Part shown: piece after piece, positions 8,268 to 25,765 of the stretch
How positions within the stretch are numbered: the stretch's first letter is position 1
Layout of the letters: each line of letters begins with the position of its first letter
Origin: Victivallis vadensis
GTDB lineage: Bacteria; Verrucomicrobiota; Lentisphaeria; Victivallales; Victivallaceae
Reading direction: 5' to 3'
NCBI RefSeq assembly: GCF_003096415.1
Contig: NZ_QEKH01000015.1
Span: 1-64,000 of the forward strand
DNA length: 64,000 nucleotides
Notes under the pieces: model-generated
What the model saw: only the letters and a program-made list of their open reading frames with translations
Databases searched by the model: none
What the model was told of the DNA's origin: nothing
Translations under genes and position numbers: made by a program

Positions 8268-8310
8268 TGTCGCAACCTGTTTTTCCATATATCGCAAACT
8301 GTGGTACTTC

Positions 8311-8341
8311 AATATAACATTTGCAATTATATTTACAAATG
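8311..8341 (-). promoter_or_regulatory. promoter with overlapping inverted repeat for the second DUF3990 operon
   Basis: On the minus strand TTGTAA (8338-8333) and TATATT (8316-8311) are 16 bp apart. An inverted repeat, CATTTGCAA/TTACAAATG with one mismatch (8319-8341), covers the -35 box and spacer. That is the position expected for an autorepressor operator. Prediction from sequence only. Confidence 0.45.
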
Positions 8342-10080: not shown

Positions 10081-10124
10081 AACAAGAGATAGGATAGAAG
10101 GGAAAATATTTTTACAGATAGTTT

Positions 10125-10826: not shown

Positions 10827-10885
10827 ATTCAATACTCCGGAATTGGCCCCGCTGCAGCCGTACCACTGCCGCGGGGCGGGGGGGA

Positions 10886-11830: not shown

Positions 11831-11843
11831 TGAAATGCCTTTC

Positions 11844-12833
11844 TTATTTGATTTGACTGTTGCGCAGAATGTCGAGAGCGGCGTTCCGCGACATCATGGC
11901 GGTTTCGTAATCGGGAAAGACCTGAGCGTACAGGTCGTAGCGGGGAAGCGAAATCATCTCCGACTTCTCGCCTCGGGCGGCCGGCGTGATCTCGCCGATC
12001 TCCACCCGACCGTCGGAAAAATACCGTTCGCAGTAACGCGCGGGTTCGGGGGATTTTTCGATTTCAGATGTGAAATGTTTCTGATTGGCGAGGAAGCCCC
12101 ACACCATCGAAATGGGCGTTGCCAGCTCGGCTTCCACCTTGCCGCAGCCGCGCAATGCGAGAGAGCCGGCCATGGCCCGCCGCGATTCACCGGCTTCGGC
12201 TTCCGCTCGCGCGAGGATGATATTCCGGAGATAGTGATGCGCCCGATTCCGGAAAATCTCCTGATTGGTTTCTTCCTCTCGGATTAGGGAGAGTTCGAGG
12301 AGCGTGACGAACAGTTCCATCAGAAAATAGCGTTTTTCGACATCCGGCTCCTGCTGGAGAAAATCGCAGATGTAATTCCGGACGCCGGCGCTTTTCAGAA
12401 CCGGGTTGGAGAGCGCGGAACGGATCAGCCGCAGGCGCCTGTCCGCCAGTTGGAAGATTTCGATGAATCTCTCCGGCAGGAATCCCGGCTCCGTCTGCAT
12501 CTCCAGTTCGAGGTTCAGGAACTTGAAGAAGACGCAGTGAAATTTTCCGGCGCACTGCCAGAACTTCAGGTGAAGCCGATCCCATTCGCTTGTCAACTCC
12601 ATGACGCCGGCCAGCCCCCACTCTTTGATGGTACGGTGGTACTCTTTGTCGGCAGCCAGGTGCCAGACGATCTTGAATGGCGGCGTGATGCCGTACAGCT
12701 CGTCCAGAACGGCGGTGCGGCATCCTTTGCCGGTGAGCTTCGCGTGGACGGCCTTGCGCTTGAGCATCAGCAGGAACCCCTGCAGCCTGTGGTCGAACAC
12801 GTGGGTCTGGAAACAGTCGTTGATCAGTAACAT
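11844..12833 (-). CDS. hypothetical protein coupled to the AAA+ ATPase gene
   Basis: From the ATG at 12833 (AGGAG at a good distance) the protein has 329 residues and is mostly helical. Examples are LPERFIEIFQLADRRLRLIRSAL and KRYFLMELFVTLLELSLIREEE. No signal peptide is seen. The start lies inside the last 10 nt of the ATPase gene, so the two are co-translated. No family was recognised; as the immediate partner of a ClpB-type ATPase it may be a substrate adaptor, which is inference. Confidence 0.55.
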   Translation of the reverse strand: MLLINDCFQTHVFDHRLQGFLLMLKRKAVHAKLTGKGCRTAVLDELYGITPPFKIVWHLAADKEYHRTIKEWGLAGVMELTSEWDRLHLKFWQCAGKFHCVFFKFLNLELEMQTEPGFLPERFIEIFQLADRRLRLIRSALSNPVLKSAGVRNYICDFLQQEPDVEKRYFLMELFVTLLELSLIREEETNQEIFRNRAHHYLRNIILARAEAEAGESRRAMAGSLALRGCGKVEAELATPISMVWGFLANQKHFTSEIEKSPEPARYCERYFSDGRVEIGEITPAARGEKSEMISLPRYDLYAQVFPDYETAMMSRNAALDILRNSQIK

Positions 12834-13831
12834 GAATGGAACTCCTTTGTTTGATTGGGTTTGGGAAGCAAAATCAACTGCCGCGATCCGCCGGGAGCAA
12901 GATCGAGCCAGCCGGTTCGTTCTTTTTCCGGGGAGCACAACAGTTCGAACATAAATTCTCGGATGGTTCTCTCGACGGAGCTGCGAAGCTCGCGCGCGCC
13001 GTTGCGCGTATTGTCGATGGAGCGGATCGTTTCCTCGATCAGATCGGCCGAAAAGCCCCTGATATCGATCCGGTGCGTTCCCCGGTAGACCGGAAGCAGC
13101 TGCGCATAGAATTTACGGGCGATCAGCCGCAGGTGTTCCGGCTTGAGCGGCCGGAAGATCAGGATTTCATGGTTGAATTTGCCGAAACGGGCGACGAATT
13201 CGGGAGAAAACCGCTCTTTCAACTGCATCTCCAGACTCTGCTGCAGCCGGCGTTCGCTGAGGTGTTTTGCGCTTTGGAAAAGGTGAGCGCCGATATTGGA
13301 GGTGGCGATCAGGAAAAAGCGTTCGAGATTGTAGGTGCGATTGTTGTTGAGCGTGATCCGCGCGGCATCCAGCTGCTGCAGAAGGATCGTGAAAAGCTGC
13401 GGATGCGCCTTTTCGATTTCATCATAAAGGATGATGCCCTCGTCGTTCTCTTCGAGGAAGCGCTCAAGACGGCCCGGAGATTTTCCGCCGGGAGTACCGA
13501 GCAGGTTGACCAGCGCCTCCTCTCCGGCCTGGCGTGAAAACTCCGACATATCGAGCCGCAGCAGCCGCGCATCGGGCGAACCGTACATGAACTCTGCCGC
13601 GGCCCGGACGGATTCCGTTTTCCCCACACCGGTGGGGCCGAGCAGAAACAGGGTTCCGCGCGGCCGGTTGGGAGTGCTGAGTTGGCACCAGCCGTATTTG
13701 ATGCAGTCGGAAAACGACCCGATGACGGTCTCCTGTCCGATGATCTGCCGGCGCAGAAAAGTTTCCAGACGACGGCTTTTCTCGACGACTTCCCGCATGG
13801 TGTCTTTTGAATCTCTGTTCAGGTTTCTCAT
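12824..13831 (-). CDS. single-ring ClpA/ClpB-type AAA+ ATPase
   Basis: The 335-residue protein matches the second AAA+ module of ClpA/ClpB. It shows IIGQETVI, Walker A GPTGVGKT (residues 65-72), RLDMSEFSRQ, Walker B GIILYDEIEKAHP, sensor-1 LIATSNIG, the arginine-finger block FSPEFVARF and the sensor-2 block NGARELRSSVERTI. The N-terminal domain, first ring and middle domain of ClpB are absent, and no ClpP-binding loop was identified. It probably remodels or unfolds a protein. It leads the minus-strand gene run opposite the T4SS operon, with which it shares the intergenic region 13832-14106. Confidence 0.85.
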   Translation of the reverse strand: MRNLNRDSKDTMREVVEKSRRLETFLRRQIIGQETVIGSFSDCIKYGWCQLSTPNRPRGTLFLLGPTGVGKTESVRAAAEFMYGSPDARLLRLDMSEFSRQAGEEALVNLLGTPGGKSPGRLERFLEENDEGIILYDEIEKAHPQLFTILLQQLDAARITLNNNRTYNLERFFLIATSNIGAHLFQSAKHLSERRLQQSLEMQLKERFSPEFVARFGKFNHEILIFRPLKPEHLRLIARKFYAQLLPVYRGTHRIDIRGFSADLIEETIRSIDNTRNGARELRSSVERTIREFMFELLCSPEKERTGWLDLAPGGSRQLILLPKPNQTKEFHSCY

Positions 13832-14106
13832 GGTTAATTAACTCATAAAAATTTGAAATTTTGTTGAGATTTGCTCTTGATGTTTTGAATCCGAGATGCT
13901 TTATTGATATCGCATAAAGGAGATCTATTCTAAAATTAAATTAAACACATATCATCTTTATTTCAAGCGCATAGCAAAAATAAATCAAATAAAAATCGAT
14001 AAAAATGAATCATATATAACCATTGTATATCACGGTTATTTATCGTTACGATAATAACGATAAAATAATAGTAAATAATAACGATAAAAAACAAGGAGCG
14101 GATAAG
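13832..14106. promoter_or_regulatory. AT-rich divergent regulatory region between the ATPase genes and the T4SS operon
   Basis: This 275-bp stretch is far richer in A+T than its surroundings. It holds the palindromes GTTAATTAAC (13833-13842) and AAAATTT-G-AAATTTT (13848-13862). Near the T4SS start it has an inverted repeat TTATCGTTA/TAACGATAA (14040-14063). A 15-bp direct repeat, ATAATAACGATAAAA, occurs at 14051-14065 and 14075-14089. These are likely operator sites controlling one or both divergent operons. AGGAG at 14094 serves the first T4SS gene. Confidence 0.55.
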
Positions 14107-14433
14107 ATGAAAATGTACCATCAGCTCTCCGACAAAGTGAAAGGCTTCGTGATTTCCGTTGTGATCCTGGGAATGTCGTGGCGGTCGGACGCCTCAATTC
14201 AGCAGGTGACGCTGGACCAGGGTCTCGGTTTTGTGGGGTATTTCATAATCGGGATGATCATGCTGACGAGCCTGATTCTGATCGGAGTCGGTGGGTATCA
14301 GCTCAGCCAGGATTCCGGACGCGGCAAAATGACGATTGCCGGCGGCGTACTGACCCCGGTGTTTCTGGCGGTGGTCTATTGGATCTTCAAAAATATCCTG
14401 AACATCGACCTGGATTTCATTTCCAATCTGTGA
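14107..14433 (+). CDS. VirB2/TrbC-like T4SS pilin candidate
   Basis: From the ATG at 14107 (AAGGAG upstream) the protein has 108 residues. An N-terminal hydrophobic segment is followed by two helices (GYFIIGMIMLTSLILIGVGGYQL and AGGVLTPVFLAVVYWIF), the layout of VirB2/TrbC conjugative pilins. It is first in an operon directly followed by VirB3-like and VirB4 genes, the standard order. The frame is open further upstream, but that part has Asn/Lys-rich AT-driven sequence. Identity rests on topology and position, not on a clear motif. Confidence 0.6.
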   Translation: MKMYHQLSDKVKGFVISVVILGMSWRSDASIQQVTLDQGLGFVGYFIIGMIMLTSLILIGVGGYQLSQDSGRGKMTIAGGVLTPVFLAVVYWIFKNILNIDLDFISNL

Positions 14434-14443
14434 GGAGCCGGAT

Positions 14444-14779
14444 ATGAACGAGGAAATTTTGATCGTAATCAACCGCAATCCCGGCCAGGCGGTTCACTCG
14501 GTCGTGAAACTGTTCGGCATCCGCATTCGGGGCAACAGCGTCTACATCTTTTTCGGCGGCCTGCTCGCCGGGGTGCTGCTGGCCATGGCGGCTTATCAGG
14601 TCAGCATTCTGCTGGCGGCGATGTTGCTGGTTGCGCCGGCAGCTGCTGCGGTCGTTTTCATCCGGATGTTCGTGGCCAACAAACCGCGCGGTTATTTCGG
14701 CTTCTGGCTTGAGGAACGTTTTCGCGGTTCCAAACTCAATCCGCCGCAGAAAGCAGGAGGTAACCATGCGTCTGCCTAA
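14444..14779 (+). CDS. VirB3/TrbD-like T4SS inner-membrane protein
   Basis: The 111-residue protein has two adjacent transmembrane helices (YIFFGGLLAGVLLAMAAYQV and ILLAAMLLVAPAAAAVVFI) after a short N-terminal region. A basic cytoplasmic tail follows, as in VirB3/TrbD/TraL. It begins 10 bp after the pilin gene, and its end overlaps the VirB4 start by 14 nt. VirB3 works with VirB4 at the inner membrane in pilus assembly. The assignment is by size, topology and operon order. Confidence 0.65.
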   Translation: MNEEILIVINRNPGQAVHSVVKLFGIRIRGNSVYIFFGGLLAGVLLAMAAYQVSILLAAMLLVAPAAAAVVFIRMFVANKPRGYFGFWLEERFRGSKLNPPQKAGGNHASA

Positions 14780-17636
14780 TGCGTACATCGTACAGACAGC
14801 GAATCCGCAGGAGAGTTTTCTGGTCTACGGGGAACTCAACTCCAGGGGATTTGCAGCGAAAGGCTACCGGCTTGAGGTGCCGAATCTCGACAATGCGGGC
14901 AATGCGCTGAAGAACGATCTGTTCATGCGCCTATCGGGCTGGCTGGCTTCGCAGAGCCTCGATAAGCGCATCCAGATCCGCTATACGCGGGATGCGGACT
15001 ACCGGGATATTCTGGAACGGTACAAAGAGGACACGGAACAGTATGCCGCCGATCTCTGGAGCCGGAAAATCCGCTCTGAGAATTATGATGATTTCATGCG
15101 GCGAATTGCGGAACGCAGACTGTACCGGGAGTATGTTTCCGTATATTTCAGCAGGGAGCTGCGTCAGTTTATCGGTTCGGATTTCATACCGGAACAGGAA
15201 CAGGACAGGCGCCAGTTTGAACGGGAAGTGACGACCGCCTTTGAAGCAGACCGGACGGAACTGCAGCAATTTTTGAATCAGCCGGTAACTCCGTTGGATC
15301 ACATCGGACTGTACAAGGAATACTACCGCGCGGTCAATAAATCGGCGTTCGATCTGGATATCGATTACGAGGAGGATTTTGAGGCGGATCTCGCCGGAAT
15401 CTACCGTTGCGGCTATGCGAAAACTTCTTCCGAACCTGGTGCGGTGAGTTTTCACTCGGACGGCTATTTCCACAATATCTTCACACTCCATGACTTTCCG
15501 AAAAGCGACCTGACGCCGTTCGCCGGCAACCGCCTGCTGGGAAACGATATTCAGAATTTGACGATAGCAGTCAATATTGAACCGCTGGACACGGAAAAGG
15601 TCATTGAACAGAAACAGAAGCACTGGCGCCGGGTGCGTGCGGACCTGCTGGAAGAAGAGAGCGAAGTTGCGGCCTCCGCCGGGCTGGATGAGCTGACCGA
15701 GCACATTTACCGGCTCGGCAAGGGAGAGGATTCGCCTTTCCGGATTGAGTATGTGATCCATACCTGGAATAAGGATGCCGCTGAACTTCAGAGCGACAGC
15801 ATGATTCTGCGGCAGGCTGCGACTTCAATGCTGACCTCGCTGGACTCCTATGAACTCGGTCTGCAGTCCATGCACAATTTCCTGAAGACGCTGCCGGGGT
15901 ACACCTGGTATAAGCGGCATGATGCGGCACTGGACTGCATGCACCGCCCGCTGGCGGCCATGCTGCCGTTTTCCTGTTCGTTTGTCGGAAAAGGCGCGGA
16001 GGGAAATATTCTGTTCGGAGGTGATCACTGCAATCTGATGACCTTTTCGTTTTTCGACGGCGACACGCCGCAACATACATTGTGCCTGGGCCAGACCGGA
16101 TCGGGGAAGTCGGTCAATTTCGTATCGATTCTCTCGCAGGCATACTACCAGTTTGCCAAGGTCGTGATCATCGAAGAAGGCGGCAGTTACTACAACCTGA
16201 CGCGGATTCACGGGAATGAAGCACAATATATTGTGATCGACCCGAATGCCAACCAGACGTTGAACTACTTTGACACCGGCGGCCTGCCGCTGACTCCGGG
16301 ACAACTTGAATTTGTGACGGCGTTCCTGACCGCCATGTGCGGCGAGAGCAGCGACCTGGAGGTGATTCAGGACCGGACCGCTCTCATCAGCCCGTTCGTC
16401 GCGGCAGTCTATACGGATGCGTATGTCGAATGGCGCAACCGGAACCGCGAAGGACTCGAACAGGCTGCCCGGATGGCGTTGTCCGTGGAAAAACTGATTC
16501 CGTCCATGCCGATCGACCGGAATACTGCGCTGGACGCCTGGATCGAACTGCGGGATGCGCTGGCAGCCCCGGCGGAGAGTCCGGATGAGGCCCGGCGCCG
16601 ACTGAAGGAACTTTACAAATCGTGGACGATCCGGGAGCTCAATGACTATATCATCGAGGATCCGGAGATGCTGCGCAATATTTCGTATGCGTATATGGCG
16701 AAGTCGGATATGCCCTATCACAGTCAGCTGGTGGAGGCGCTGCGCGAAACTTCGCTGCTGCATCTGGATCGCTCCGACCTGAACCGGGTCGCGGCCCGGC
16801 TGGCGGTCTATTCCGTTGAAAGCGGCAAAGGCAGTCTGTTCGACGGAGAAACGACGGTGGATCTCGGCAGACGCTGGGTTCATATCGAACTCGGAAAAAT
16901 CGCGCAGAGCGGTTCCGTACTGCGGAATCTGGTCGGGATCGTGATCAACAATCTGGTGATGAACCAGATCATCAATATGCCGCGCGGCAGCGCCAAACTG
17001 TATTTGTTTGAGGAGCTGGCCCGATTGCTCGCCACGGTTCCCGGAGCGGCGGAGATCGTCAAACAGTCTTATGCCCAGTTGCGGAAATACAAGTGCGTAG
17101 CGGTCACGATCACGCAGTCCGCCGCCCAGATGACGCAGAGCGGTGTGGGGCAGATCGTGATGACGCAGAGCAAGCAGTTTCTGTTTTTGCGCAATACCGA
17201 TGCGGCCGAACTGCGGCTGATCACGAATTATGTGCCGCTTTCGGAGGATGCTCAACAGAACATCCGGAATTTCCCGACGCCGGAACATCTGCCGCCGGGC
17301 AGGAAGTTTTCCTCGTTCCTGCTGGTTGCGCAACGGGCCGGCTGGCCGCTGTGCGGCGTCGGACGGAATTACGCTTCTTCGGCGGTTCTGGCGGCCGCGG
17401 CGACCTCGGGAGGGCTGCACAGCCGGCTGGAACGGCTGATGAAGGAACTTCAGGCGCAGAATGCGGGCTTGCCGTTTGCCGAACTGCTTTTGAGGGCAAT
17501 GGAGATCGCGACGGTCGACAACACGCTGTTTGCGATCCTCGACCGGATCGAAAAACTCGGCAATGAACAGATCAAATCTCTGGTGATCGATGCCAGAATT
17601 GAGTTCAAAACTTTACAGAAAGGAACAATGATATGA
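14766..17636 (+). CDS. virB4: VirB4/TrbE/TraC-type T4SS ATPase
   Basis: The 956-residue protein starts at the ATG at 14766 (AGGAGG upstream). The N-terminal half is the CagE/VirB4-like domain. The RecA-like C-terminal half has Walker A LCLGQTGSGKS near residue 445, then VVIIEEGGSYYNL, Walker B KLYLFEELARLL and AVTITQSAAQM, the usual VirB4 motifs. It powers substrate transfer and pilus biogenesis at the inner membrane. It is the largest conserved gene of the operon and the most certain sign of a type IV secretion system. No truncation or frameshift is visible. Confidence 0.9.
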   Translation: MRLPNAYIVQTANPQESFLVYGELNSRGFAAKGYRLEVPNLDNAGNALKNDLFMRLSGWLASQSLDKRIQIRYTRDADYRDILERYKEDTEQYAADLWSRKIRSENYDDFMRRIAERRLYREYVSVYFSRELRQFIGSDFIPEQEQDRRQFEREVTTAFEADRTELQQFLNQPVTPLDHIGLYKEYYRAVNKSAFDLDIDYEEDFEADLAGIYRCGYAKTSSEPGAVSFHSDGYFHNIFTLHDFPKSDLTPFAGNRLLGNDIQNLTIAVNIEPLDTEKVIEQKQKHWRRVRADLLEEESEVAASAGLDELTEHIYRLGKGEDSPFRIEYVIHTWNKDAAELQSDSMILRQAATSMLTSLDSYELGLQSMHNFLKTLPGYTWYKRHDAALDCMHRPLAAMLPFSCSFVGKGAEGNILFGGDHCNLMTFSFFDGDTPQHTLCLGQTGSGKSVNFVSILSQAYYQFAKVVIIEEGGSYYNLTRIHGNEAQYIVIDPNANQTLNYFDTGGLPLTPGQLEFVTAFLTAMCGESSDLEVIQDRTALISPFVAAVYTDAYVEWRNRNREGLEQAARMALSVEKLIPSMPIDRNTALDAWIELRDALAAPAESPDEARRRLKELYKSWTIRELNDYIIEDPEMLRNISYAYMAKSDMPYHSQLVEALRETSLLHLDRSDLNRVAARLAVYSVESGKGSLFDGETTVDLGRRWVHIELGKIAQSGSVLRNLVGIVINNLVMNQIINMPRGSAKLYLFEELARLLATVPGAAEIVKQSYAQLRKYKCVAVTITQSAAQMTQSGVGQIVMTQSKQFLFLRNTDAAELRLITNYVPLSEDAQQNIRNFPTPEHLPPGRKFSSFLLVAQRAGWPLCGVGRNYASSAVLAAAATSGGLHSRLERLMKELQAQNAGLPFAELLLRAMEIATVDNTLFAILDRIEKLGNEQIKSLVIDARIEFKTLQKGTMI

Positions 17637-17671
17637 AGAACGACCAAGACAATCGCCGGAGCTTGAAATGA
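17633..17671 (+). CDS. tiny overlapping ORF 1 (12 residues)
   Basis: ATG at 17633 overlaps the VirB4 stop (ATGA) and encodes MKNDQDNRRSLK. AAAGGA lies about 10 nt upstream. Its stop overlaps the next tiny ORF in the same way. It may serve only to pass ribosomes on. Confidence 0.25.
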   Translation: MKNDQDNRRSLK

Positions 17672-17733
17672 AAATTCCAGTTCTCAATGAAGGCATCAAA
17701 ATATCAATCAGTTTACAGGAGGCATTATGTTAA
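17668..17733 (+). CDS. tiny overlapping ORF 2 (21 residues)
   Basis: ATG at 17668 overlaps the stop of the preceding 12-residue ORF and encodes MKIPVLNEGIKISISLQEAL plus Cys. It ends 7 nt inside the coiled-coil gene. CGGAG precedes it. Together the two ORFs form an unbroken chain of overlaps from virB4 to the 925-residue gene. Confidence 0.25.
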   Translation: MKIPVLNEGIKISISLQEALC

Positions 17734-20504
17734 AACACTCACTGCTTGCGACAGCTCTTACCGGAATCATGCTCTGCAGCCATGGAGCCAGAGTATTTTA
17801 CCAGTCCGAGGAGGCGGCACGGAGCTACCAGATTCCGGTGACGGCGGATCAGGTCGGCCATACGGCCACTTTTCTCGGATGCGCCCAGCGGTTCAACGAC
17901 AATTATCTGCACATCGTGATCTACCTGACTGATCCGGAGGGAACCCGGCTCGGCCAGACGATCCTCGACACGAAAGTGACGGCGAGCATCAGCCTGATCA
18001 AGACGACGCAGCTGATTGAGGGAAATTACGTCCTTGCAGAAACCGGCAACGGCGACGATCCCACCAGGGGCGAGATGGTGATGGCGACGGCGATCGACTG
18101 GGACGCCCCCGGCGACGATATCGGCAATCTGCAGGAGGAGTGGAATCAGATGCTTGACGATCTCAAGGATGAACTGAGCGGCGAGCTGGATTCCCGGACC
18201 GCAGAATTGCAGGGTAAAATCACAGAGCTGCAAAAACAGTTGAATGACGCGATTTCCAAACACGATGCGGATCAGGCGGCGATCCTGAAAAAGATCGAAG
18301 AGTTTCAAAAAGAGATTTCCACCTTGGAAACGGAGCTGAAAGCCAGAATTGCAGAATTGGAAAAAGCCAAAGGCGAGTTGCAGGCGGAACAGGATCAGCT
18401 TCGTGCGGATCATGAAAAGGATATTGCGGCACTGAATGCCCGGATCAATGAACTGGATTCCAAGTTCGGAGCCGAGATATCCAAGATTCAGAACATGATC
18501 ACGCAGCTCACGCAGAACATGGAACAACTTGAAGATCGCTTTTCCGCGACCGACGAGGAACTGAAAGATAAAATCGAACAGCTTGAAAAGGAGCAACAAG
18601 AAATTCGGCAGGAGATCGCCGAAGGCAATCCTGAACTCAACGCCAGACTTGACACACTTGAAAAACAGCAGCAGGAGTTGGAAAACAGGCTGGATGAGGA
18701 AACGGAGGCGCTTCGCAGCGAGATTTCCGAGCTGAGCAAACAGCAGAATCAACTCCGGCAGGAACTGGAGCTTGCGAAGATCAGGCATGACAGCGATATC
18801 GCGTCGATCCGAAGCCGGATCGATTCGGAAACCGCCACGCTGAAAGCCGCGCATGAGGCGGATATCAAACTGCTCGAACAGTCGATTTCCAACCTAGATT
18901 CCAAATACACCGCAGAGTCCGGACGGCTCAGTTCGGAACTGGAGAGGACCAACGACCGGCTGGCAGAACTGGAAAAGGCGTATGCGGCCGGCAACAAGGA
19001 GCTTGAAAGCGAGATCAATGCTCTGAAGCTGGATCAACTGTCGCTGTCCAACCGGATTGCGAATCTGGAAGCGGCGCATTCGCGTGATGTTTCCTCGCTG
19101 CAGTCGCAGATCAACGAGAAGAATGCGGCGTTGAACGACAAAATCGACAGCGCCGTGGCCGATCTGCGTCAGGAGCAGCTTGCCGCCGAAAACCGGTATC
19201 GGGAGCAGGTCCGGGAGCTGAATGACCGCCTTGCCGGTCTGGAATCGAAATTGGACGCCAAAGTCGATCGCCTGAGCGACGCCGATCGGGAGCTGTATAA
19301 GGAGATCGCCGCTCTGCGCGAAAAGCTGGCGGGGCATCAGGCAGAACTGGAAGCGGTCAAGGCCGCCCATGAACGGGACATCGCCGCTCTTGAGGAACAA
19401 TACCGCGAACTTGACGCCAAATATCAGGCCGACAAGGCGGAACTCGATTCCCGGATTGCCGACATCGAAACCGATATTGTAGGGCTTCGTGAGAAGCACG
19501 AGGCGGATGTTGCGGCTATCCGCGCGGAAATCGATGAGGCCGCGCAGGGACTCAATGAGGAAATCAAAACTCTCTATCAGGAACTGGCGGCGCAGAAAGA
19601 GGCGATGGAAATTCATAAACAGGAAGTGGTTCAGGCGATAGACCGTATTCAACAACAGATTTCCCTGCTGGATGAGGCGATCAACGAGCGGCTGGCCAAC
19701 CTTGAAAACCGGATTCGCTACTCCGTCTATTCGGATGAGAGGTTGGCCGAACTGAAGAAAGAATACGAACAGAAAGTCCGGGAAAAGGAAGCGGAAATCG
19801 CCGCGCTGGATATCGAAATCAGAAAACAGCAGGCGGCCGGTCAGGACGTTGCGTTGTTGCTCGAACAGCGCAACCAGGCGCTCACGGAACTCGAAAAGCT
19901 GCGGAATGAACTCAAGGATATCGAATTTGCGATCGTAATTCGCAACGATGAGTCAGAATTTGCGGTTCACGAGGCTGAAATCCTGCAACTGAAGAAAGAA
20001 CTGGCTGCGTTGCGAAATTCGACTGACGCTCTGATCAAGGATCTGCAGCAGCAGTTGATCAATACGGAGAAGAAACTGCTGGCGTTGATCGAGGAAATCA
20101 AGGCCGGCGCCGCAGGCGAGGATCAGGAACTCCGGCAGGAGCTGGAAGCGTTCAAGGAACAAGTTCTCGAATTGATTGAAAAACTGCAGGCCGGCCAGAC
20201 CGGAGGCGACGACGCCTTGAAACAACTGATTGAGGAATTGGACGCCTCCCACAAAGAGTTGCTGGCGAAGTTGGAACAGCAATTCGCGGACCGTCTGGAG
20301 GAACTGAAGGTTCAGCAGGACAAGCAGTACGACAATCTCCGGACAACGATAAGCGATCTTGCGCTGCAGCAGCGATACTCCAACGGAGGCTTTTACGAGC
20401 GTAGTTCTTATCAACTGCCGAACATCGAATCAGAAGAAGTGCCGGCGGATAATCGCGATCTTCGGGTAAGTCCCGATAAAACTCTTGAAATGGAAAATTT
20501 TTAA
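17727..20504 (+). CDS. secreted giant coiled-coil protein of the T4SS operon
   Basis: The 925-residue protein starts with a signal peptide (MLKHSLLATALTGIMLCSHG). A beta-rich domain of about 110 residues follows (YQIPVTADQVGHTATFLGC, NNYLHIVIYLTDPEG-like block). From about residue 130 to 880 it is almost uninterrupted heptad-type coiled coil, with repeated blocks such as KAAHERDIAALEEQYRELD. There are few breaks and no cysteines after the N-terminal domain. A polar tail with FYERSSYQL ends the chain. AGGAGG precedes the ATG. Such a rod would be roughly 110 nm long if fully extended. It is not a standard VirB component; a periplasmic or surface rod, or adhesin, is the inference. It is flanked by virB4 and a lipoprotein gene. 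Confidence 0.75.
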   Translation: MLKHSLLATALTGIMLCSHGARVFYQSEEAARSYQIPVTADQVGHTATFLGCAQRFNDNYLHIVIYLTDPEGTRLGQTILDTKVTASISLIKTTQLIEGNYVLAETGNGDDPTRGEMVMATAIDWDAPGDDIGNLQEEWNQMLDDLKDELSGELDSRTAELQGKITELQKQLNDAISKHDADQAAILKKIEEFQKEISTLETELKARIAELEKAKGELQAEQDQLRADHEKDIAALNARINELDSKFGAEISKIQNMITQLTQNMEQLEDRFSATDEELKDKIEQLEKEQQEIRQEIAEGNPELNARLDTLEKQQQELENRLDEETEALRSEISELSKQQNQLRQELELAKIRHDSDIASIRSRIDSETATLKAAHEADIKLLEQSISNLDSKYTAESGRLSSELERTNDRLAELEKAYAAGNKELESEINALKLDQLSLSNRIANLEAAHSRDVSSLQSQINEKNAALNDKIDSAVADLRQEQLAAENRYREQVRELNDRLAGLESKLDAKVDRLSDADRELYKEIAALREKLAGHQAELEAVKAAHERDIAALEEQYRELDAKYQADKAELDSRIADIETDIVGLREKHEADVAAIRAEIDEAAQGLNEEIKTLYQELAAQKEAMEIHKQEVVQAIDRIQQQISLLDEAINERLANLENRIRYSVYSDERLAELKKEYEQKVREKEAEIAALDIEIRKQQAAGQDVALLLEQRNQALTELEKLRNELKDIEFAIVIRNDESEFAVHEAEILQLKKELAALRNSTDALIKDLQQQLINTEKKLLALIEEIKAGAAGEDQELRQELEAFKEQVLELIEKLQAGQTGGDDALKQLIEELDASHKELLAKLEQQFADRLEELKVQQDKQYDNLRTTISDLALQQRYSNGGFYERSSYQLPNIESEEVPADNRDLRVSPDKTLEMENF

Positions 20505-20519
20505 TGGAAGGAACTGAGT

Positions 20520-20969
20520 ATGAAACGAATTGTGATGATGATATGTGCGGGAGCGATCGGAGCGGCGGCATTGTGCGGCTGTTCGTCGAGCCAGTTGGCG
20601 AATACGTCAGCTTCCGGCCTGCTGGCCCCGGCCCTCGGCCTTGGCGGCGGACTTGCCGGATTGTATGCGACCGAGGACGAGGATGTCGGCACGCAGCTGG
20701 CGGCAACCGGTGCGGCGGCAGCGGGAGCTTTCCTGCTCGGCCAGTTCATTGAGAACGACTTCAAGGAAGAGAAGGCCAAAGAGTACCGGGCCGGTTACGA
20801 CCTCGGCCGGGCGAACTCCATCAAGGAACTGTACTGGCTGACGCAACAGCTTCACCGTGCGCAGGATGGCGATCAGCCGCAGATGCAGATGTATGAACTG
20901 CCGGTGCAGTACCCGGCCGATGGCGCGAAGTATGTCCCGGATACGGTCTATCTGCCGGTCGTCAAGTAG
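20520..20969 (+). CDS. outer-membrane lipoprotein of the T4SS operon (VirB7-position)
   Basis: The 149-residue protein has a lipoprotein signal peptide with lipobox ALCGC (acylated Cys21). Two glycine/alanine-rich hydrophobic stretches follow (LLAPALGLGGGLAGLYA and ATGAAAAGAFLLGQFI), then a soluble C-terminal part with several Gln and Tyr residues. It starts 15 bp after the coiled-coil gene. By position and lipidation it could replace VirB7 in the outer-membrane core complex, but I see no sequence match, and it is longer than typical VirB7. Confidence 0.65.
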   Translation: MKRIVMMICAGAIGAAALCGCSSSQLANTSASGLLAPALGLGGGLAGLYATEDEDVGTQLAATGAAAAGAFLLGQFIENDFKEEKAKEYRAGYDLGRANSIKELYWLTQQLHRAQDGDQPQMQMYELPVQYPADGAKYVPDTVYLPVVK

Positions 20970-20980
20970 GAGATGCAACG

Positions 20981-21862
20981 ATGAAAATGGCGAAATATAC
21001 CGCTGCAGTCCTGTTTGCCGCGCTTCTCTGTGCCCCGCCGCCGGCGATGGCGTTTCTGCAGGAAGTGCATGACAGCGTGATCTATGTGCACAACACGATC
21101 AAGGCGATTCAGGACGAAGCTTATCAGCAGATGGCATTGGATATCGGCGCCGACCAGCTCGGAACGACCGGCGAAATCCTGAAAACCAGCGTGGACACGT
21201 TGAAAGTCACCAAAGATACCTTCGATGTCTGCAAGGACACCTACGATACCGCTATGGATATCTCCGGCTACATCGGTGATCCGATGAAGCTGACTTCCTA
21301 CCTGAACTCGCGCTTCTGGCACGAGAACGAGATCTCCGCCGCGCTGAACATCACCCGCGACGCGATGGAAATGGCCGACGGCGATGTCGCCTATACCGGC
21401 GAAATCGAATCGATGCTGCATCAGGTCGATTACGCGGTCGCCGACGTTCAATTGAAGCAGTCGGAGAATCTGGCGGAAACTCAGAAAGGGGCGATTGCGG
21501 TTCACAAGTTCATGTCGGAATGGGGGCCGAAGGCGCTGATTCAACTGGCCGATCTGAACCGGGAGGACCAGAAATACAATCCGCGCGAATCCTCGCTGAC
21601 GGAAATGCAGTACGCAGCTTACCGGAACGGCATCTGGCAGTCCAACACGCTCGGACAGATGTTCGCGGCGCAGACCGCCCACTCCGCGATGGTGGCGCAG
21701 CAGCTCTACATGGAAAATGTGCGCACGGATCAGGCGGACTACGACCGTGCCAAAGCGATCTATGACAACCGGAATCTGACGGAAGCCGGGAAAGCGGCGC
21801 TTGAGTCCAAAGGGGCCATATCCGGCAATTTCATCGACGCAATTCTGGGAGATGACGAATGA
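20981..21862 (+). CDS. VirB5/TrbJ-like periplasmic T4SS protein
   Basis: The 293-residue protein has a cleavable signal peptide ending AMA-F. It is then nearly all helical, with long Gln/Asp-rich helices (IQDEAYQQMALDIGADQLG, AAQTAHSAMVAQQLYMENV) as in the TrbJ/VirB5 family of minor pilus-tip proteins. It lies directly before the TrbL/VirB6-like gene, the usual trbJ-trbL neighbourhood, and overlaps it by 4 nt. The assignment is by architecture and synteny. Confidence 0.65.
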   Translation: MKMAKYTAAVLFAALLCAPPPAMAFLQEVHDSVIYVHNTIKAIQDEAYQQMALDIGADQLGTTGEILKTSVDTLKVTKDTFDVCKDTYDTAMDISGYIGDPMKLTSYLNSRFWHENEISAALNITRDAMEMADGDVAYTGEIESMLHQVDYAVADVQLKQSENLAETQKGAIAVHKFMSEWGPKALIQLADLNREDQKYNPRESSLTEMQYAAYRNGIWQSNTLGQMFAAQTAHSAMVAQQLYMENVRTDQADYDRAKAIYDNRNLTEAGKAALESKGAISGNFIDAILGDDE

Positions 21863-22866
21863 AACCGGAAATGGCATTGCAAAACATCATGCAGGTGATG
21901 GTCGATATTCTGGACAAGATGCACATGGTCTGTCTGGCGTTCGCCCTGCTGCTGATCCTGCTCTCCGTCTACCGGCAGTATTCGCAATTCGGGGAGTTCC
22001 TCGGATTGAAATACATGGCGGGCGTACTGCTGACGATCGTCCTGATCGGGCTGTTCCCGGAAGTCTCGGATTACCTCTTCCGGGCCATGTTGAAGTGGGG
22101 GCGGCAGGTCACTGCCGAAGCGGAGGCGGTGATGAAGGTCCTGTTCGATATTGAAATCGACGGAGCCTGGTATGACTCGATCGTCGTGGGGATTTCGAGC
22201 GTGATGTACAAAGGGGGCATCTGGATCGGCCGTTTTATCCGGGAGATCATGGTCATCGTGCTGTGCGGTTTGTTCCTGATCCTGAAAACCCTGTCGCCGA
22301 TCTTCATTGCGATGCTTGCCGTGCCGGAAACCAAAAGCGTTGCGATCAATTTCCTGACCGTGGCGTTCGGATTGGTAATGACGCCTCTTTGCATGTTGTT
22401 CGGCGACCTTGCGATGATCTGGGTTGCGGCCCAGATGTGGGAGCAGACCGGGATGCTTGCCGCCGTCACGGCTGCAACCGGAAGCCTGGCCGGCGGCGCG
22501 GTCGGCGGAAGCCTGACGGTGCTGGCGAGTTCACCGCCCGGAGCCATCACGGTTGCCGCCGGAGCAGCCGGGGCGCTGATCGCTTTCGTTTGCGTGTTTG
22601 TCCTGTTGTGCGTGGTGATGTATGTGGGAATTCCGTGGGCCTGCATTTCGCTTTTCCGCGGAGCGGGAATCGGCAATGCGCTGGCGATGTCGCTCAATAC
22701 CGCCTCCAATGTGATGGCGGTGGTCAGAACCGGCCAGACTGCCGCCAGATCGGCGCCGGGAGGGCTTGGAACCGTTTCAAAGGCATTACACGCCAGAAGC
22801 GCTGCAGCCAATCCGGCCGGAGCCGCCGGGGCGGGACGCTCCCCGGCCGGAAAGGAGGAAGCATGA
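21859..22866 (+). CDS. TrbL/VirB6-like polytopic T4SS membrane protein
   Basis: The 335-residue protein has about six to seven transmembrane helices, for example VCLAFALLLILLSVY, YMAGVLLTIVLIGLF and EIMVIVLCGLFLILKTLSPIFIAML. There is a long Gly/Ala-rich loop, and the C-terminus is Ala/Gly/Pro-rich and polar, as in TrbL/VirB6. Its ATG overlaps the stop of the VirB5-like gene. VirB6 proteins form part of the inner-membrane translocation channel. The next plus-strand gene begins only after a 360-bp gap filled by an antisense gene. Confidence 0.75.
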   Translation: MKPEMALQNIMQVMVDILDKMHMVCLAFALLLILLSVYRQYSQFGEFLGLKYMAGVLLTIVLIGLFPEVSDYLFRAMLKWGRQVTAEAEAVMKVLFDIEIDGAWYDSIVVGISSVMYKGGIWIGRFIREIMVIVLCGLFLILKTLSPIFIAMLAVPETKSVAINFLTVAFGLVMTPLCMLFGDLAMIWVAAQMWEQTGMLAAVTAATGSLAGGAVGGSLTVLASSPPGAITVAAGAAGALIAFVCVFVLLCVVMYVGIPWACISLFRGAGIGNALAMSLNTASNVMAVVRTGQTAARSAPGGLGTVSKALHARSAAANPAGAAGAGRSPAGKEEA

Positions 22867-22871
22867 AACGG

Positions 22872-23147
22872 TCACTCTTTGTCTTTCCCGGCCGGATTCT
22901 CGTTGAAGAACAATGTTTCCGGCGCGGGCGTGGAGTGCTTGCGGATATTTTCCCGTTGAATCCGGTGGATTTCCCGGGCGTCTTTGATCGCCTGCCGGCG
23001 TCTCGCCGCTTTCCGGCGGTCAGCCTCGGCCTGCTTTTCCATAAGCTCGGTCTGGCGTTTGATGTTCGCTCGGGTTTCCTCCGATTCGCCGCAGCCGGTG
23101 AAAACGAAACCCGCAAGGCAGGCTCCGAGGATCAGGAATTTCTTCAT
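22872..23147 (-). CDS. small antisense lipoprotein, TrbK-like entry-exclusion candidate
   Basis: This 91-residue protein is encoded on the minus strand inside the plus-strand T4SS operon. It has a lipoprotein signal (MKKFLILGACLAGFVFTGC, Cys19 acylated), then a short charged helix (RQTELMEKQAEADRRKAARRRQ) and a disordered tail. AAAGGA precedes the ATG at 23147. In RP4-type systems trbK, a small lipoprotein gene next to trbJ and trbL, blocks entry of a second copy of the element. Position and form fit that role here, but the reversed strand is unusual and I see no sequence match to TrbK. Confidence 0.55.
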   Translation of the reverse strand: MKKFLILGACLAGFVFTGCGESEETRANIKRQTELMEKQAEADRRKAARRRQAIKDAREIHRIQRENIRKHSTPAPETLFFNENPAGKDKE

Positions 23148-23182
23148 AGCAGTTCCTTTCTTTGGAAAAGTTGTTACAAACG

Positions 23183-23216
23183 GGTCTGCCCGTTCACTGA
23201 TCAGAACGGGCAGACC
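23183..23216. repeat. perfect 13-bp palindrome with 8-nt loop
   Basis: GGTCTGCCCGTTC pairs perfectly with GAACGGGCAGACC around ACTGATCA. It lies between the starts of the divergent antisense lipoprotein gene and the VirB8-like gene. It resembles the palindrome at 10048-10080 (consensus TCTGC-S-CG-Y-TCA). It may be an operator or a hairpin in the long T4SS transcript. Confidence 0.6.
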
Positions 23217-23229
23217 GGAAAGGCAATAT

Positions 23230-23838
23230 ATGTCTGCTGAAATTTATCATCCCACTGCCTGTGAACTGGTTTGCCGGGAACGTCGGTTACTCGTTTTCTG
23301 GATCGTTTATCATGCCGTCATCTGGATTGCCATTGCATTGGGCGCGTTTTTCGCGGTCCAGTATATGACCATGCCGGACCGGGTGCTGGTCCTGGGACGC
23401 GACCGCAATATCTACCTGGGCAATTCCGCACCGGTGGAGTCCCGGATCGTAATTGAGGACATCGCACTGCGGGCGGCCTATGCACTGCTGTCGCGCCGGT
23501 ACGATTCCCGGGACGACCGGCTGCTGGAAATGGTCTGTACGAAGCGCGGCCTCGGGCGGGCGCGCAACTATCTGGACAGTACCCGGGAGTTGTTCGAGCG
23601 GCGGATGCTGATGCAGGAGATCGAACACTGTTCGGTCGAATACGTCAGTTCCGGCGGCGGATATTTCGCTCTGGTCAAGGGAATCCTGAACCTGAGCGGC
23701 ATCTATTTCGGCTATCCGCACATTCAGAAACGCGACTTCGCGCTGCTGATGCGGCTGGAACGCTCGGCTTCGGATTTCGAGCTGCCGTTCCGGGTGGAAG
23801 GACTGAAACTGTATGAGGAGGAACATCAGGATGAATGA
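23230..23838 (+). CDS. VirB8/TraE-like T4SS protein, first copy
   Basis: From the ATG at 23230 (AAAGG upstream) the protein has 202 residues. It has a cytoplasmic N-terminus of about 20 residues, one transmembrane helix (LLVFWIVYHAVIWIAIALGAFFAVQY) and a periplasmic alpha+beta domain. This is the bitopic plan of VirB8/TraE/TrbF inner-membrane scaffold proteins. The open frame extends far upstream, but that part is antisense to the lipoprotein gene. The stop lies 8 nt inside the next gene. Confidence 0.6.
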   Translation: MSAEIYHPTACELVCRERRLLVFWIVYHAVIWIAIALGAFFAVQYMTMPDRVLVLGRDRNIYLGNSAPVESRIVIEDIALRAAYALLSRRYDSRDDRLLEMVCTKRGLGRARNYLDSTRELFERRMLMQEIEHCSVEYVSSGGGYFALVKGILNLSGIYFGYPHIQKRDFALLMRLERSASDFELPFRVEGLKLYEEEHQDE

Positions 23839-24418
23839 TCCGAGTTATCGCAACTGGAACCGGTGGCTGCTCCGGGGAGTGCTGGTCTATGTGCCGCTCT
23901 CTTTCCTGACTCCGCTGCTGATGTACCAGTTCCGGGACAACAATCGTCTGATCGTGATCGACGGGCGCAATTCATACCATGTCACGAAATACGCCTCACA
24001 GGAACAACTGGTCCGGCTCTATGAATATATGGCAAGGCTGGGGACCGATGCGCTGCTGATGCGGAACCCGGCGGGGCTGGACCGGCCGGAACTCTTCGAT
24101 GAGATGTATGTGGGACAGGCCCGGCAGAAGGCGCTCGATCTGCTCAAGGCCGAGGCGGAGAATTTCGGGAAACAGGAGCTCCACCAGAAAGCGGAGATTC
24201 TCGGAATTCAGGTATTGGAGGCCGACAGCCGCACCTCGTTTTTGAAAATCTCAGGACAGCTGCTCCGCAACTCCGGCAGGAACCTCAACGCTTCCGCAGA
24301 AATTCTGCAGTTCGAGCTGTCGATGAATCTCGTGGTCAACTACGACCTCGGAAAAAATACGGTTTATCCGTTTGTCGTTTCCGATATCAATTTCAATCAG
24401 CAATCAATCAGAAAGTAG
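23831..24418 (+). CDS. VirB8/TraE-like T4SS protein, second copy
   Basis: From the ATG at 23831 (GAGGA upstream, overlapping the previous stop) the protein has 195 residues with the same plan. It has a short N-terminus, one transmembrane helix (LLRGVLVYVPLSFLTPLLMY) and a periplasmic alpha+beta domain (LVVNYDLGKNTVYPFVVSDI). It is of similar size to its neighbour and probably a diverged paralogue, possibly forming a hetero-oligomer with it. It precedes the VirB9-like gene as expected. Confidence 0.6.
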   Translation: MNDPSYRNWNRWLLRGVLVYVPLSFLTPLLMYQFRDNNRLIVIDGRNSYHVTKYASQEQLVRLYEYMARLGTDALLMRNPAGLDRPELFDEMYVGQARQKALDLLKAEAENFGKQELHQKAEILGIQVLEADSRTSFLKISGQLLRNSGRNLNASAEILQFELSMNLVVNYDLGKNTVYPFVVSDINFNQQSIRK

Positions 24419-24427
24419 AGGTAACAC

Positions 24428-25543
24428 ATGATGTTGAGAAGTAACATGTTCCGCCGGTTCGGATTCCTGCTTGCCCTTGGCGGGCCGATGTTCTGTTCCG
24501 CCGGGGAAAGCCCGGAAAGGCAGATCCGGGAGATGAACCAGTTTCAGGAGTATGTGCTGGCGCAGGGGGAAGTCTACAAGATCTATGTCAAAAAGGACGA
24601 CGGCGTGACGACTGTGACGTTTCCGTCCGCCATCTCCAAGATCGCCGGGGTGAACGTCTCCACCGATGGAAGCACCGATTTTCAGATTTCCGCGCAGCCG
24701 GGCGGCTATTACTTCAATCTGGCGGCGCTGAAGGAAGGCGCGGCGGGAACTTTGACCGTCGTATTCAACCGCAAGACCTACATCCTGTATCTGGTGCAGG
24801 ACAACGCCAAAGCGTTCGCCGCCGTCAACTTCACCGGCGGCTCCGGCGGCGGTCCGGAGGCCGTCGGCCGCTCCGGCGGCGTAACACCGGCAAGGCTGCT
24901 CTCGCTGATCGATATGGCCAAGGCATACGATCTGCTTATGCAGCGCTATCCGACCGAGCTGCGGGATACGAAACGCTCGACCGCCAGGGCGGTGTTTCAG
25001 TTTGAAAAATTCCGGCTGGAGCTGCTGGAGGTGATCCGGTTCCACCATGAGGACACCCTCGTTTTCAAGGTCTTGCTGCACAATGATACAGATGAGGAGA
25101 TTCTCTATGACAAGTTCAGCTTTTCGGTTCAGGCGGGGAATCGGACTTATCCGATGAGCGCCGCCGACGCCACCGGCGTGATGCCGCCGCAGAGTGCCAC
25201 CTATGCGTTCTTCACCGTCACCGGCACGCCGGAGGGACGCCGGAACAATCTGGCCCCGGACAACGATTTCAAAGTCGGAGTAACGGCACAGTATATGGAA
25301 ACGGCACCGCTTACGGTGGTGCCGGAACAGCCGGACCGGGCCGAAGCGAAGATGGACCGACATCTCGAAAAGCTCACGGATTCCGTGGAGAAGCTGTTGG
25401 TACAGCAGGCCGTTCCCGCGCCGGCGGCAGAACCTGCTGAAGAGGAGAACGCCGGGAAACTCCCGGAAACACCGGAGAAGATCGAGTGGTGGGACTTTTC
25501 GGAGTTTCCGTCGAATCTGGCTTTTCTTATCAATTGGATGTGA
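24428..25543 (+). CDS. VirB9/TrbG-like T4SS outer-membrane core protein
   Basis: The 371-residue protein has a signal peptide (FGFLLALGGPMFCSA). Its N-terminal beta domain resembles the VirB9/TrbG N-domain that contacts VirB10 (GVTTVTFPSAISKIAGVNV, GTLTVVFNRKTYILYLVQD). A second beta domain follows (HNDTDEEILYDKFSFSVQAGNRTYP). The C-terminus (MDRHLEKLTDSVEKLL and beyond) is helical and charged. GAGG precedes the ATG. Position after VirB8 and before a VirB10-like start supports the call. Confidence 0.65.
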   Translation: MMLRSNMFRRFGFLLALGGPMFCSAGESPERQIREMNQFQEYVLAQGEVYKIYVKKDDGVTTVTFPSAISKIAGVNVSTDGSTDFQISAQPGGYYFNLAALKEGAAGTLTVVFNRKTYILYLVQDNAKAFAAVNFTGGSGGGPEAVGRSGGVTPARLLSLIDMAKAYDLLMQRYPTELRDTKRSTARAVFQFEKFRLELLEVIRFHHEDTLVFKVLLHNDTDEEILYDKFSFSVQAGNRTYPMSAADATGVMPPQSATYAFFTVTGTPEGRRNNLAPDNDFKVGVTAQYMETAPLTVVPEQPDRAEAKMDRHLEKLTDSVEKLLVQQAVPAPAAEPAEEENAGKLPETPEKIEWWDFSEFPSNLAFLINWM

Positions 25544-25561
25544 TAAGGTGAAGGTGACATC

Positions 25562-25753
25562 ATGAATTTGCGGGAATTCTTCAAGAAATTGCGCAGTCCG
25601 CTCGGGACCTCTCTTTTGTTCCTTGCGGCAATCGTCACACTGGCCTTCTCGGCAGTACCGTTCCTGATCCGGGAAGATGCCGGTACACTCCAGGTCGTCC
25701 GTTCGGAAAGCGGCGAGGCGAGCTTCAATATCCCCGGCAAATTAAGCAGGTAG
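25562..25753 (+). pseudogene. 5' fragment of a VirB10/TrbI-like gene
   Basis: Only 63 residues. A basic cytoplasmic start (MNLREFFKKLRSPLG), one transmembrane helix (TSLLFLAAIVTLAFSAVPFLI) and a few polar residues are present, then a stop. VirB10 proteins have this start, but then a long linker and a large periplasmic beta-barrel domain, absent here. A new, complete ribosome-binding site and an unrelated secreted protein begin immediately after the stop. I infer a deletion or insertion breakpoint at about 25740-25755 that removed the rest of the T4SS. Confidence 0.55.
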
Positions 25754-25765
25754 GAGGATATTACG

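What the first reader, a model, noticed from the sequence alone, without database searches (positions are those of the whole stretch)
17727..20504. T4SS operon encoding a ~110-nm secreted coiled-coil rod
A 925-residue protein with signal peptide, a small N-terminal domain and about 750 residues of heptad-like sequence is embedded between virB4 and a lipoprotein gene. Standard T4SS operons have no such component. At about 0.15 nm per residue the rod could reach roughly 110 nm, suitable for a surface fibre, tether or spacer.
Basis: partly seen in the sequence, partly recalled or inferred. Interest (0 to 1): 0.7.

Follow-up and report, generated by a model that had tools for sequence, protein, structure and literature searches.

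The report
Swappable-head coiled-coil rod for conjugation
A group of gut and environmental bacteria carry, inside the gene cluster for their DNA-transfer machine, a gene for a long exported rod whose tip has been exchanged between copies while the rest of the machine stayed the same, which suggests a contact fibre that helps decide which cell to mate with.

Summary
The 925-aa ORF at 17727-20504 is real: signal peptide, ~110-residue beta-sandwich head, long coiled coil with a hairpin, conserved C-terminal tail. It belongs to a VirB-type conjugative system of Lentisphaeria: all 12 homologous places in 197 class genomes touch a T4SS gene. A divergent second T4SS in the same genome (VirB4 42%) has a 1243-aa counterpart in the same spot. 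On a VirB4 tree the gene marks one clade (100/100); a neighbouring clade fills the slot with unrelated beta-domain repeat proteins (3 of 3 loci).

New here: the N-terminal heads are exchanged. Between two close elements the nine other T4SS genes are 90-97% identical, the head mostly 28-68% with dS above 1.2. Head and coil trees conflict (AU p 1.5e-4 and 1.8e-8). The beta-repeat proteins show the same pattern. Stalk length varies, largely by repeat units. Best reading: a modular mating-contact fibre with a variable recognition head and a machine-facing C-terminus. Surface location and head function are inferred. Length is about 80-105 nm; the window's own element is broken in virB10.

The parts
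17727..20504 (+). Exported coiled-coil rod protein (CC), 925 aa
   Evidence: homologues in the same place
17727..17786 (+). Signal peptide (residues 1-20), no clear lipobox; replaced relative to G005 copy 2
   Evidence: inspection
17787..18116 (+). N-terminal beta-sandwich head (residues 21-130), the exchangeable module
   Evidence: exchange in relatives
18117..19724 (+). Main coiled-coil stalk (residues 131-666); length varies between homologues
19725..19949 (+). Helical hairpin of the C-terminal module (residues 667-741), conserved between divergent systems
   Evidence: pLDDT about 85-91
19950..20378 (+). C-terminal helices (residues 742-884)
20379..20501 (+). Disordered C-terminal tail with the conserved pattern D-x-R-D-x-R-x-S-(x4)-L
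   Evidence: invariant in 9 of 9 aligned rows
14101..14433 (+). VirB2-like pilin (assigned by size, hydrophobicity and order; no Pfam match)
14444..14779 (+). VirB3-like (weak DUF4133 match, E 0.016)
14766..17636 (+). VirB4 ATPase
   Evidence: TraG P-loop 2.6e-12; TraC-F-type 3.7e-31, VirB4_CagE 8.9e-23
20520..20969 (+). Small lipoprotein with a glycine-rich segment (VirB7 position)
   Evidence: sequence
20981..21862 (+). J: VirB5/TrbJ-family relative, separate from CC
   Evidence: PF07996 in 4 of 17 members, best 1.5e-6; none in the window member itself
21859..22866 (+). VirB6-like membrane protein (assigned by order and hydrophobicity)
23236..23838 (+). First VirB8-position protein (assigned by order)
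23831..24418 (+). Second VirB8-position protein (assigned by order; conserved across the phylum)
24428..25543 (+). VirB9-like (CagX, E 0.0023, below cut-off)
25562..25753 (+). VirB10 fragment, 63 codons; intact 398-aa VirB10/TrbI in G005
12824..13831 (-). AAA+ ATPase (AAA_2, ClpB/ClpX-like) divergent from the operon; related ATPases sit near many T4SS loci of the phylum

Best explanation
CC is the stalk-and-head subunit of a mating-contact fibre encoded by integrative conjugative elements of Lentisphaeria. Shown by sequence: a Sec-type N-terminus; an N-terminal head that recombination exchanges between otherwise near-identical T4SSs; a coiled-coil stalk that varies in length, largely by whole repeat units; a C-terminal module and tail conserved between T4SSs whose VirB4s share only 42% identity; a fixed place between virB4 and the VirB7-position lipoprotein gene. 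Inferred: after Sec export the conserved C-terminal end docks on the T4SS envelope or pilus complex, the rod projects outward, and the head touches a receptor on the recipient (or on the same cell), so that head type sets partner recognition. The beta-repeat proteins in the same slot of a neighbouring clade would do the same job with another stalk.
For: T4SS linkage: 12 of 12 CC places in 197 class genomes are next to virB4 and/or the lipoprotein gene (contexts 14, 20, 37, 40, 41, 63); 7 of 7 loci from the 84,980-species collection likewise carry T4SS genes beside it (six of the seven are contigs also seen). VirB4 tree: CC clade 100/100; CC follows VirB4 in 8 of 10 rows, the other 2 contigs end in or at VirB4. 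Head exchange, C19 of the own genome versus G084 (another family): nine other T4SS genes 90-97% identical, dS 0.14-0.36; CC residues 1-290 are 28-68% identical with dS above 1.2; beyond residue 290 it is 90-96%. In sliding windows, 282 windows in the nine other genes have dS at most 0.78, while the first 22 of 102 windows of CC have dS of 1.35 or more. G044 pair: VirB4 94%, head 28%, coil 76-78%. AU tests reject one history for head and coil. Same pattern in the beta-repeat slot proteins. Two copies with different heads in tandem in G005 and in L061. C-module more conserved than head: mean pairwise identity 0.57 versus 0.34 over 10 pairs. Purifying selection on CC in the window-G005 pair, dN/dS 0.17. 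Head fold resembles TNF/C1q-type and lectin jelly rolls, best Z 9.0 with the BC2L-C N-terminal lectin domain.
Against: No experiment and no localisation data. The head match is middling (background best Z is typically 7-8) and rests on one of five models (85.7 versus 51-57). No outer-membrane anchor was found; the protein could stay in the periplasm. Exchangeable heads also fit exclusion or escape from phages. The window's own system lacks most of virB10, so this copy may be non-functional. One VirB4 fragment of related type (L083, G022) has no CC after it, but it is itself truncated. Several CC loci lie in MAGs on short contigs.
Confidence: 0.55

Rival explanations
1. Surface-exclusion or competition factor: the rod projects from cells carrying the element and its head blocks or inspects incoming donors, head type defining exclusion groups, as PrgA's long stalk serves surface exclusion in enterococci.
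For: Head variation between related elements also fits exclusion groups; PrgA is a stalked surface-exclusion protein from a conjugation operon (PMC10588982, passages).
Against: Position inside the VirB core operon and conserved C-module suggest a structural part; no protease or other enzyme domain; two different heads in tandem fit recognition as well as exclusion.
Confidence: 0.2
2. Periplasmic structural part: the coil lies within the cell envelope as a scaffold around the T4SS channel and does not reach the surface.
For: Signal peptide but no recognisable outer-membrane anchor, autotransporter barrel or C-terminal sorting signal found by Pfam; C-module conserved.
Against: A rod of 80 nm or more is far longer than a periplasm is wide (general knowledge), and stalk length is free to vary, unlike a fixed scaffold; head exchange is unusual for buried parts.
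Confidence: 0.15
3. Head variation is driven by escape from phages or other agents that use the fibre as a receptor, not by partner choice; the fibre itself is a general adhesin or spacer.
For: Saturated dS confined to the head shows replacement but not its cause.
Against: No phage using this structure is known to me; none was searched for.
Confidence: 0.1

Closest known systems
PrgA and PrgB of enterococcal plasmid pCF10
   Same: Stalked surface proteins encoded in a conjugation operon; PrgA presents a domain on a roughly 40-nm stalk, PrgB an adhesin domain on Ig-like domains (PMC10588982, passages).
   Different: Gram-positive, cell-wall anchored; PrgA has a protease domain; CC has no such domain in Pfam, is longer, sits between virB4 and the VirB7 position, and has exchangeable heads.
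Big (bacterial Ig-like) proteins of IncHI and IncA/C plasmids
   Same: Large exported proteins encoded in transfer regions that bind conjugative pili and flagella and promote conjugation (PMC8730810, abstract).
   Different: Ig-like beta domains, not a coiled coil. The CHB_HEX/Fn3_assoc proteins in the same slot of the neighbouring clade are closer in style, but were not tested for kinship.
TraN (F-like plasmids) and PilV (IncI plasmids)
   Same: Donor factors that decide recipient receptors; TraN has a divergent central region between plasmids (PMC7690428, passages).
   Different: TraN is an outer-membrane protein and PilV a type IV pilus tip adhesin; here the variable part is an N-terminal head on a coiled-coil stalk. 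Sequence kinship was not tested beyond the Pfam and NCBIfam scans.
VirB5/TrbJ minor pilins
   Same: Sec-exported product of a gene that follows virB4 in classical operons (recalled).
   Different: In these operons a separate VirB5-family protein (J) is present after the lipoprotein gene; CC has no VirB5 match.
Stalked TNF/C1q-like heads (BclA, C1q, BC2L-C N-domain)
   Same: The predicted head has a jelly roll best matched by these chains.
   Different: No detectable sequence relation (best E 0.89, to an unrelated chain); trimer formation not tested.

Membership tests
VirB-type conjugative T4SS element (host system of CC) | VirB4-family ATPase | tested here: met
VirB-type conjugative T4SS element (host system of CC) | VirB10/TrbI core component | tested here: met
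   Intact in G005 (PF03743, 35.3 bits against cut-off 35) and in C19 of the own genome; NOT intact in the window copy, 63 codons left
VirB-type conjugative T4SS element (host system of CC) | VirD4/TraG coupling protein | tested here: met
   C19, G005, and C55 of the own genome
VirB-type conjugative T4SS element (host system of CC) | Relaxase | tested here: inconclusive
   Three large proteins near virD4 (838, 950 and 984 aa) gave no relaxase match in Pfam; the elements were not scanned whole
VirB-type conjugative T4SS element (host system of CC) | Integration gene (ICE) | tested here: met
   Two phage-type integrases in G005 with the same region on C55; serine recombinase next to the C19 system
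VirB5/TrbJ minor pilin (for CC itself) | PF07996 match | tested here: not met
   CC has no match at E 1 or better; J does, by family
PrgA-type surface-exclusion protein | Protease domain on the stalk and cell-wall sorting signal | tested here: not met
   No such domain in Pfam; no LPxTG in the sequence
Big (Ig-like) conjugation proteins | Ig-like domains | tested here: not met
   Pfam scan of CC shows no Ig-like domain, mainly coiled-coil-type matches
Trimeric autotransporter adhesins | C-terminal YadA-type anchor | tested here: not met
   No match; the C-terminus is predicted disordered
TNF/C1q-like jelly-roll domains (head) | Jelly-roll fold with trimeric assembly | tested here: inconclusive
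   Z up to 9.0, rmsd 2.8 over 103 residues, 10% identity; eight strands in the model; oligomer not tested

The most novel reading that the evidence does not exclude
Lentisphaeria conjugative elements have a dedicated slot between virB4 and the VirB7-position gene for a modular recognition fibre. The slot accepts two unrelated stalk designs (coiled coil; beta-domain repeats), each with a conserved machine-facing C-terminus and an exchangeable N-terminal head, sometimes two heads in tandem; the coiled-coil stalk also varies in length. It works like a phage tail fibre built into a T4SS: head exchange retargets DNA transfer.
Probability: 0.4. Interest if true: 0.78.

Novelty: new variant of a known kind. 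Interest (0 to 1): 0.6.

Why it matters
How conjugative machines choose partners is known for few systems, mostly enterobacterial and enterococcal. Here a whole lineage outside those groups carries a candidate recognition fibre whose head is swapped while the rest of the machine is conserved, and whose length varies. That makes partner choice testable by head type, gives sequence handles (head, hairpin, tail motif), and suggests that a fibre slot in a T4SS can be filled by unrelated stalks.

Tried and rejected
Pfam hits of CC to intermediate filament protein, apolipoprotein and taxilin, and NCBIfam hits to Rad50/SMC, were rejected as coiled-coil look-alikes: they fall on the coil and all but one lie below cut-off (Filament alone passes, 43.5 against 40). 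The viral-contig scan with the C-module found nothing. In plasmids, VirB4 matched 2 records, at 26% and 21% identity. Sequence search of the head profile and of the J profile in the PDB gave no credible relative. PHROGs: no match for 7 proteins. Silent head cassettes: the head profile found 7 places in 197 genomes, all of them the heads of CC genes. It does not reach the C19-type heads; the profile comparison of the two head types aligned only 43 columns, including signal peptide, at 58% probability, so their common origin is open. Diversifying selection on the whole CC was considered and not supported (dN/dS 0.17). That indels are multiples of 7 was considered and dropped: every number above 59 can be written as heptads plus hendecads. 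The viral fold search of the head gave scattered tail-fibre and collagen-like proteins at TM below 0.6 and was not used. Literature: searches listed no paper that by title or abstract describes a T4SS or a coiled-coil conjugation protein of Lentisphaerae or Victivallis. The library is open-access PMC only, so absence from print is not shown.

Rows dropped: VirB4 fragments under 600 aa (L016, L083) were left out of the tree; L016 has CC after it, L083 does not and is truncated. L085, L095, L116 and L117 could not be read downstream because their contigs end in or at VirB4. L065 has 4.7 kb with an opposite-strand ORF between virB4 and J, and L068 gave no J match. Only 2 AlphaFold jobs were available, so C19-type heads, the beta-repeat proteins, J and oligomers were not modelled. 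The AU groups were named after the identity table had been seen.

Full report
OBSERVATION. The reading frame 17727-20504 (+) is open, 925 aa, with the features described. Hydrophobic periodicity of residues 136-870 stands 5-7 standard deviations above shuffles at 3.5-3.67 residues; a 700-residue stretch of VirB4 used as control reaches at most 1.8 at those periods and 2.1 at any period tested. AlphaFold2 with six sequences (mean pLDDT 63.7, pTM 0.24) gives a beta domain (22-124), long helices from 131 to 666, a hairpin (670-703/709-738, about 85-91), helices to 884 and a disordered tail. The rod is therefore about 80 nm, up to about 100 nm if the last helices continue it; 110 nm is an upper bound.

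OPERON. Order in the window: VirB2-like, VirB3-like, VirB4, CC, lipoprotein, J, VirB6-like, two proteins in the VirB8 position, VirB9-like, then a VirB10 fragment. VirB4 is secure; VirB9 is weak (CagX E 0.0023); the rest are placed by order, size and conservation. J belongs to a family in which 4 of 17 members match PF07996, the VirB5 family, so VirB5 is a separate gene and CC is an addition to the operon.

THIS COPY IS BROKEN. The window matches G005 (same genus) at 97-98% DNA identity from 10109 to 25740, except around 17637-17769. G005 has an intact operon with VirB10, VirD4 and integrases, and two tandem CC genes of 893 and 925 aa. In the window VirB10 stops after about 60 shared codons and unrelated glycoside-hydrolase genes follow. 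The right end of the element, with virD4 and an integrase, is on contig C55 of the same genome at 98%, while the 6.6 kb between was not found there. This is a real rearrangement or an assembly join.

DISTRIBUTION. With a profile of the C-terminal module, 12 places in 8 of 197 class genomes match at E 1e-10 or better. All 12 are flanked by at least one T4SS gene: virB4 upstream (or the tandem CC), the lipoprotein gene downstream, or both (contexts); where one side is missing the contig ends. The 84,980-species collection gave 7 loci, all T4SS-linked, six of them contigs also seen, the seventh a 3.2-kb contig labelled Syntrophobacterales. That scan uses two short peptide patterns and is not exhaustive. 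The own genome holds a second T4SS on C19 (VirB4 42%) with a 1243-aa CC in the same place.

SLOT AND TREE. VirB4 searches matched 27 of 387 phylum genomes and 12 of 197 class genomes. A tree of 39 VirB4 rows puts the CC systems in one clade of 10 (100/100): 8 have CC directly after VirB4, 2 end in or at VirB4. Outside it, 0 of 29 rows have CC. Of those 29, 22 have J starting -10 to 1207 nt after VirB4 (no room for a rod gene), 3 carry slot proteins of CHB_HEX/Fn3_assoc repeats (L058, L061 with two, L062), 2 are unreadable, 1 has an opposite-strand ORF in between, and 1 gave no J. Deeper forks are weaker, so whether CC and CHB systems are sisters is open.

HEAD EXCHANGE. C19 (own genome) and G084 (another family of the order) carry T4SSs with nine other genes at 90-97% protein identity and dS 0.14-0.36, evidence of fairly recent transfer. 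In CC, residues 1-28 are 28%, 29-100 60%, 101-215 40%, 216-290 68% identical, with dS 1.2 to saturated; from 291 on, 90-96%. In 60-codon windows, the nine other genes (282 windows) reach dS 0.78 at most, while the first 22 of 102 CC windows are at 1.35 or above. Synonymous saturation points to replacement by recombination, not only to selection. Second case: two elements of G044 have VirB4 94%, coil 76-78%, head 28% identical, while the head of one is 71% identical to that of a G031 element and the other's best match is G005 copy 1 (43%). AU tests: the head data reject the two G044 rows as a clade (p 1.5e-4), and the coil data reject the head grouping (p 1.8e-8). Third and fourth cases, in the beta-repeat slot: L058 versus L062 (VirB4 94%; first 220 residues about 30%; residues 321 on 76-82%) and the tandem pair of L061 (first 115 residues 25-28%; residues 221 on 76-91%). 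Against: in the window-G005 pair only the signal peptide and upstream stretch differ strongly; the head there is ordinary (dN 0.0135, dS 0.20) and the whole gene has dN/dS 0.17.

STALK LENGTH. Complete homologues run from 768 to 1269 aa. G044's CC carries a single 388-aa insertion against G031's, four times its 97-aa internal repeat; C19 has 160 aa, two 80-aa repeats, more than G084; G074 has a 69-aa repeat; the window differs from its clade by 50 aa.

C-TERMINAL MODULE. Nine sequences of both system types share 37 invariant columns in the module, including the tail pattern D-x-R-D-x-R-x-S-(x4)-L. Within the window's clade mean identity is 0.34 in the head, 0.44-0.46 in the coil and 0.57 in the C-module. 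Conserved end and variable end are thus opposite ends of a rod, as in a fibre with a machine-facing base and a recognition tip.

HEAD FOLD. Modelled alone (best pLDDT 85.7, the other four models 51-57), it matches jelly-roll domains best: BC2L-C N-terminal lectin Z 9.0, TNF, C1q-family, PLTL lectin and BclA at 8.1-8.9. The tool's note puts ordinary best scores at 7-8, so this is a lead. Many of these relatives are trimeric tips of stalks (recalled), which suits a coiled-coil stalk.

READING. A mating-contact fibre with exchangeable head is the most economical account. Steps shown: exportable N-terminus (by inspection), T4SS membership, modularity, head exchange, length variation. Steps inferred: surface display, docking by the C-module, receptor binding, partner choice. 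Exclusion is the strongest rival; PrgA is a precedent for a stalked exclusion protein (PMC10588982, passages). Big proteins that bind conjugative pili (PMC8730810, abstract) and TraN/PilV receptor specificity (PMC7690428, passages) are precedents for the functional idea. By the tests run here CC belongs to none of these families.

Noticed in passing
window 25540-25766 and G000:C55 (L125) 11953-18565: The window's conjugative element is broken inside virB10; its virD4/integrase end lies on another contig and 6.6 kb between was not found in the genome.
   Followed up: partly
L058 1622-3556, L061 8562-11862, L062 2898-4607: Secreted CHB_HEX_C_1/Fn3_assoc repeat proteins occupy the same slot in a neighbouring T4SS clade and also have exchanged N-terminal parts and a tandem copy.
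   Followed up: partly
window 12824-13831 (-); L015, L017, L057, L079, L081, L085, L116, L117: A ClpB/ClpX-like AAA+ ATPase gene sits beside the T4SS operon in many loci across the phylum, a possible undescribed partner of these systems.
   Followed up: no
window 23236-24418: Two adjacent genes in the VirB8 position; across the phylum mostly only the second has a detectable relative.
   Followed up: no
L023/L024 (G000:C19) and L055 (G084:C71): T4SS elements about 91-92% identical in DNA over most of the operon in genomes of two different families, evidence of fairly recent horizontal transfer.
   Followed up: partly
window 17637-17769: The signal-peptide and upstream stretch of the rod gene has no match in the near-identical G005 element, where a second rod gene precedes it: probably a recombination scar.
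   Followed up: partly
window 6390-6887 (+) and 7812-8312 (-): Two similar-looking small genes, the second a DUF3990 match, beside the left end of the element.
   Followed up: no
window 30824-32107 (-): ORF that looks like a phage terminase large subunit (by eye, recalled), suggesting a prophage right of the element.
   Followed up: no
L089: A 3.2-kb contig binned as Syntrophobacterales carries the C-terminal end of a rod gene with J and VirB6: mis-binning or transfer.
   Followed up: no
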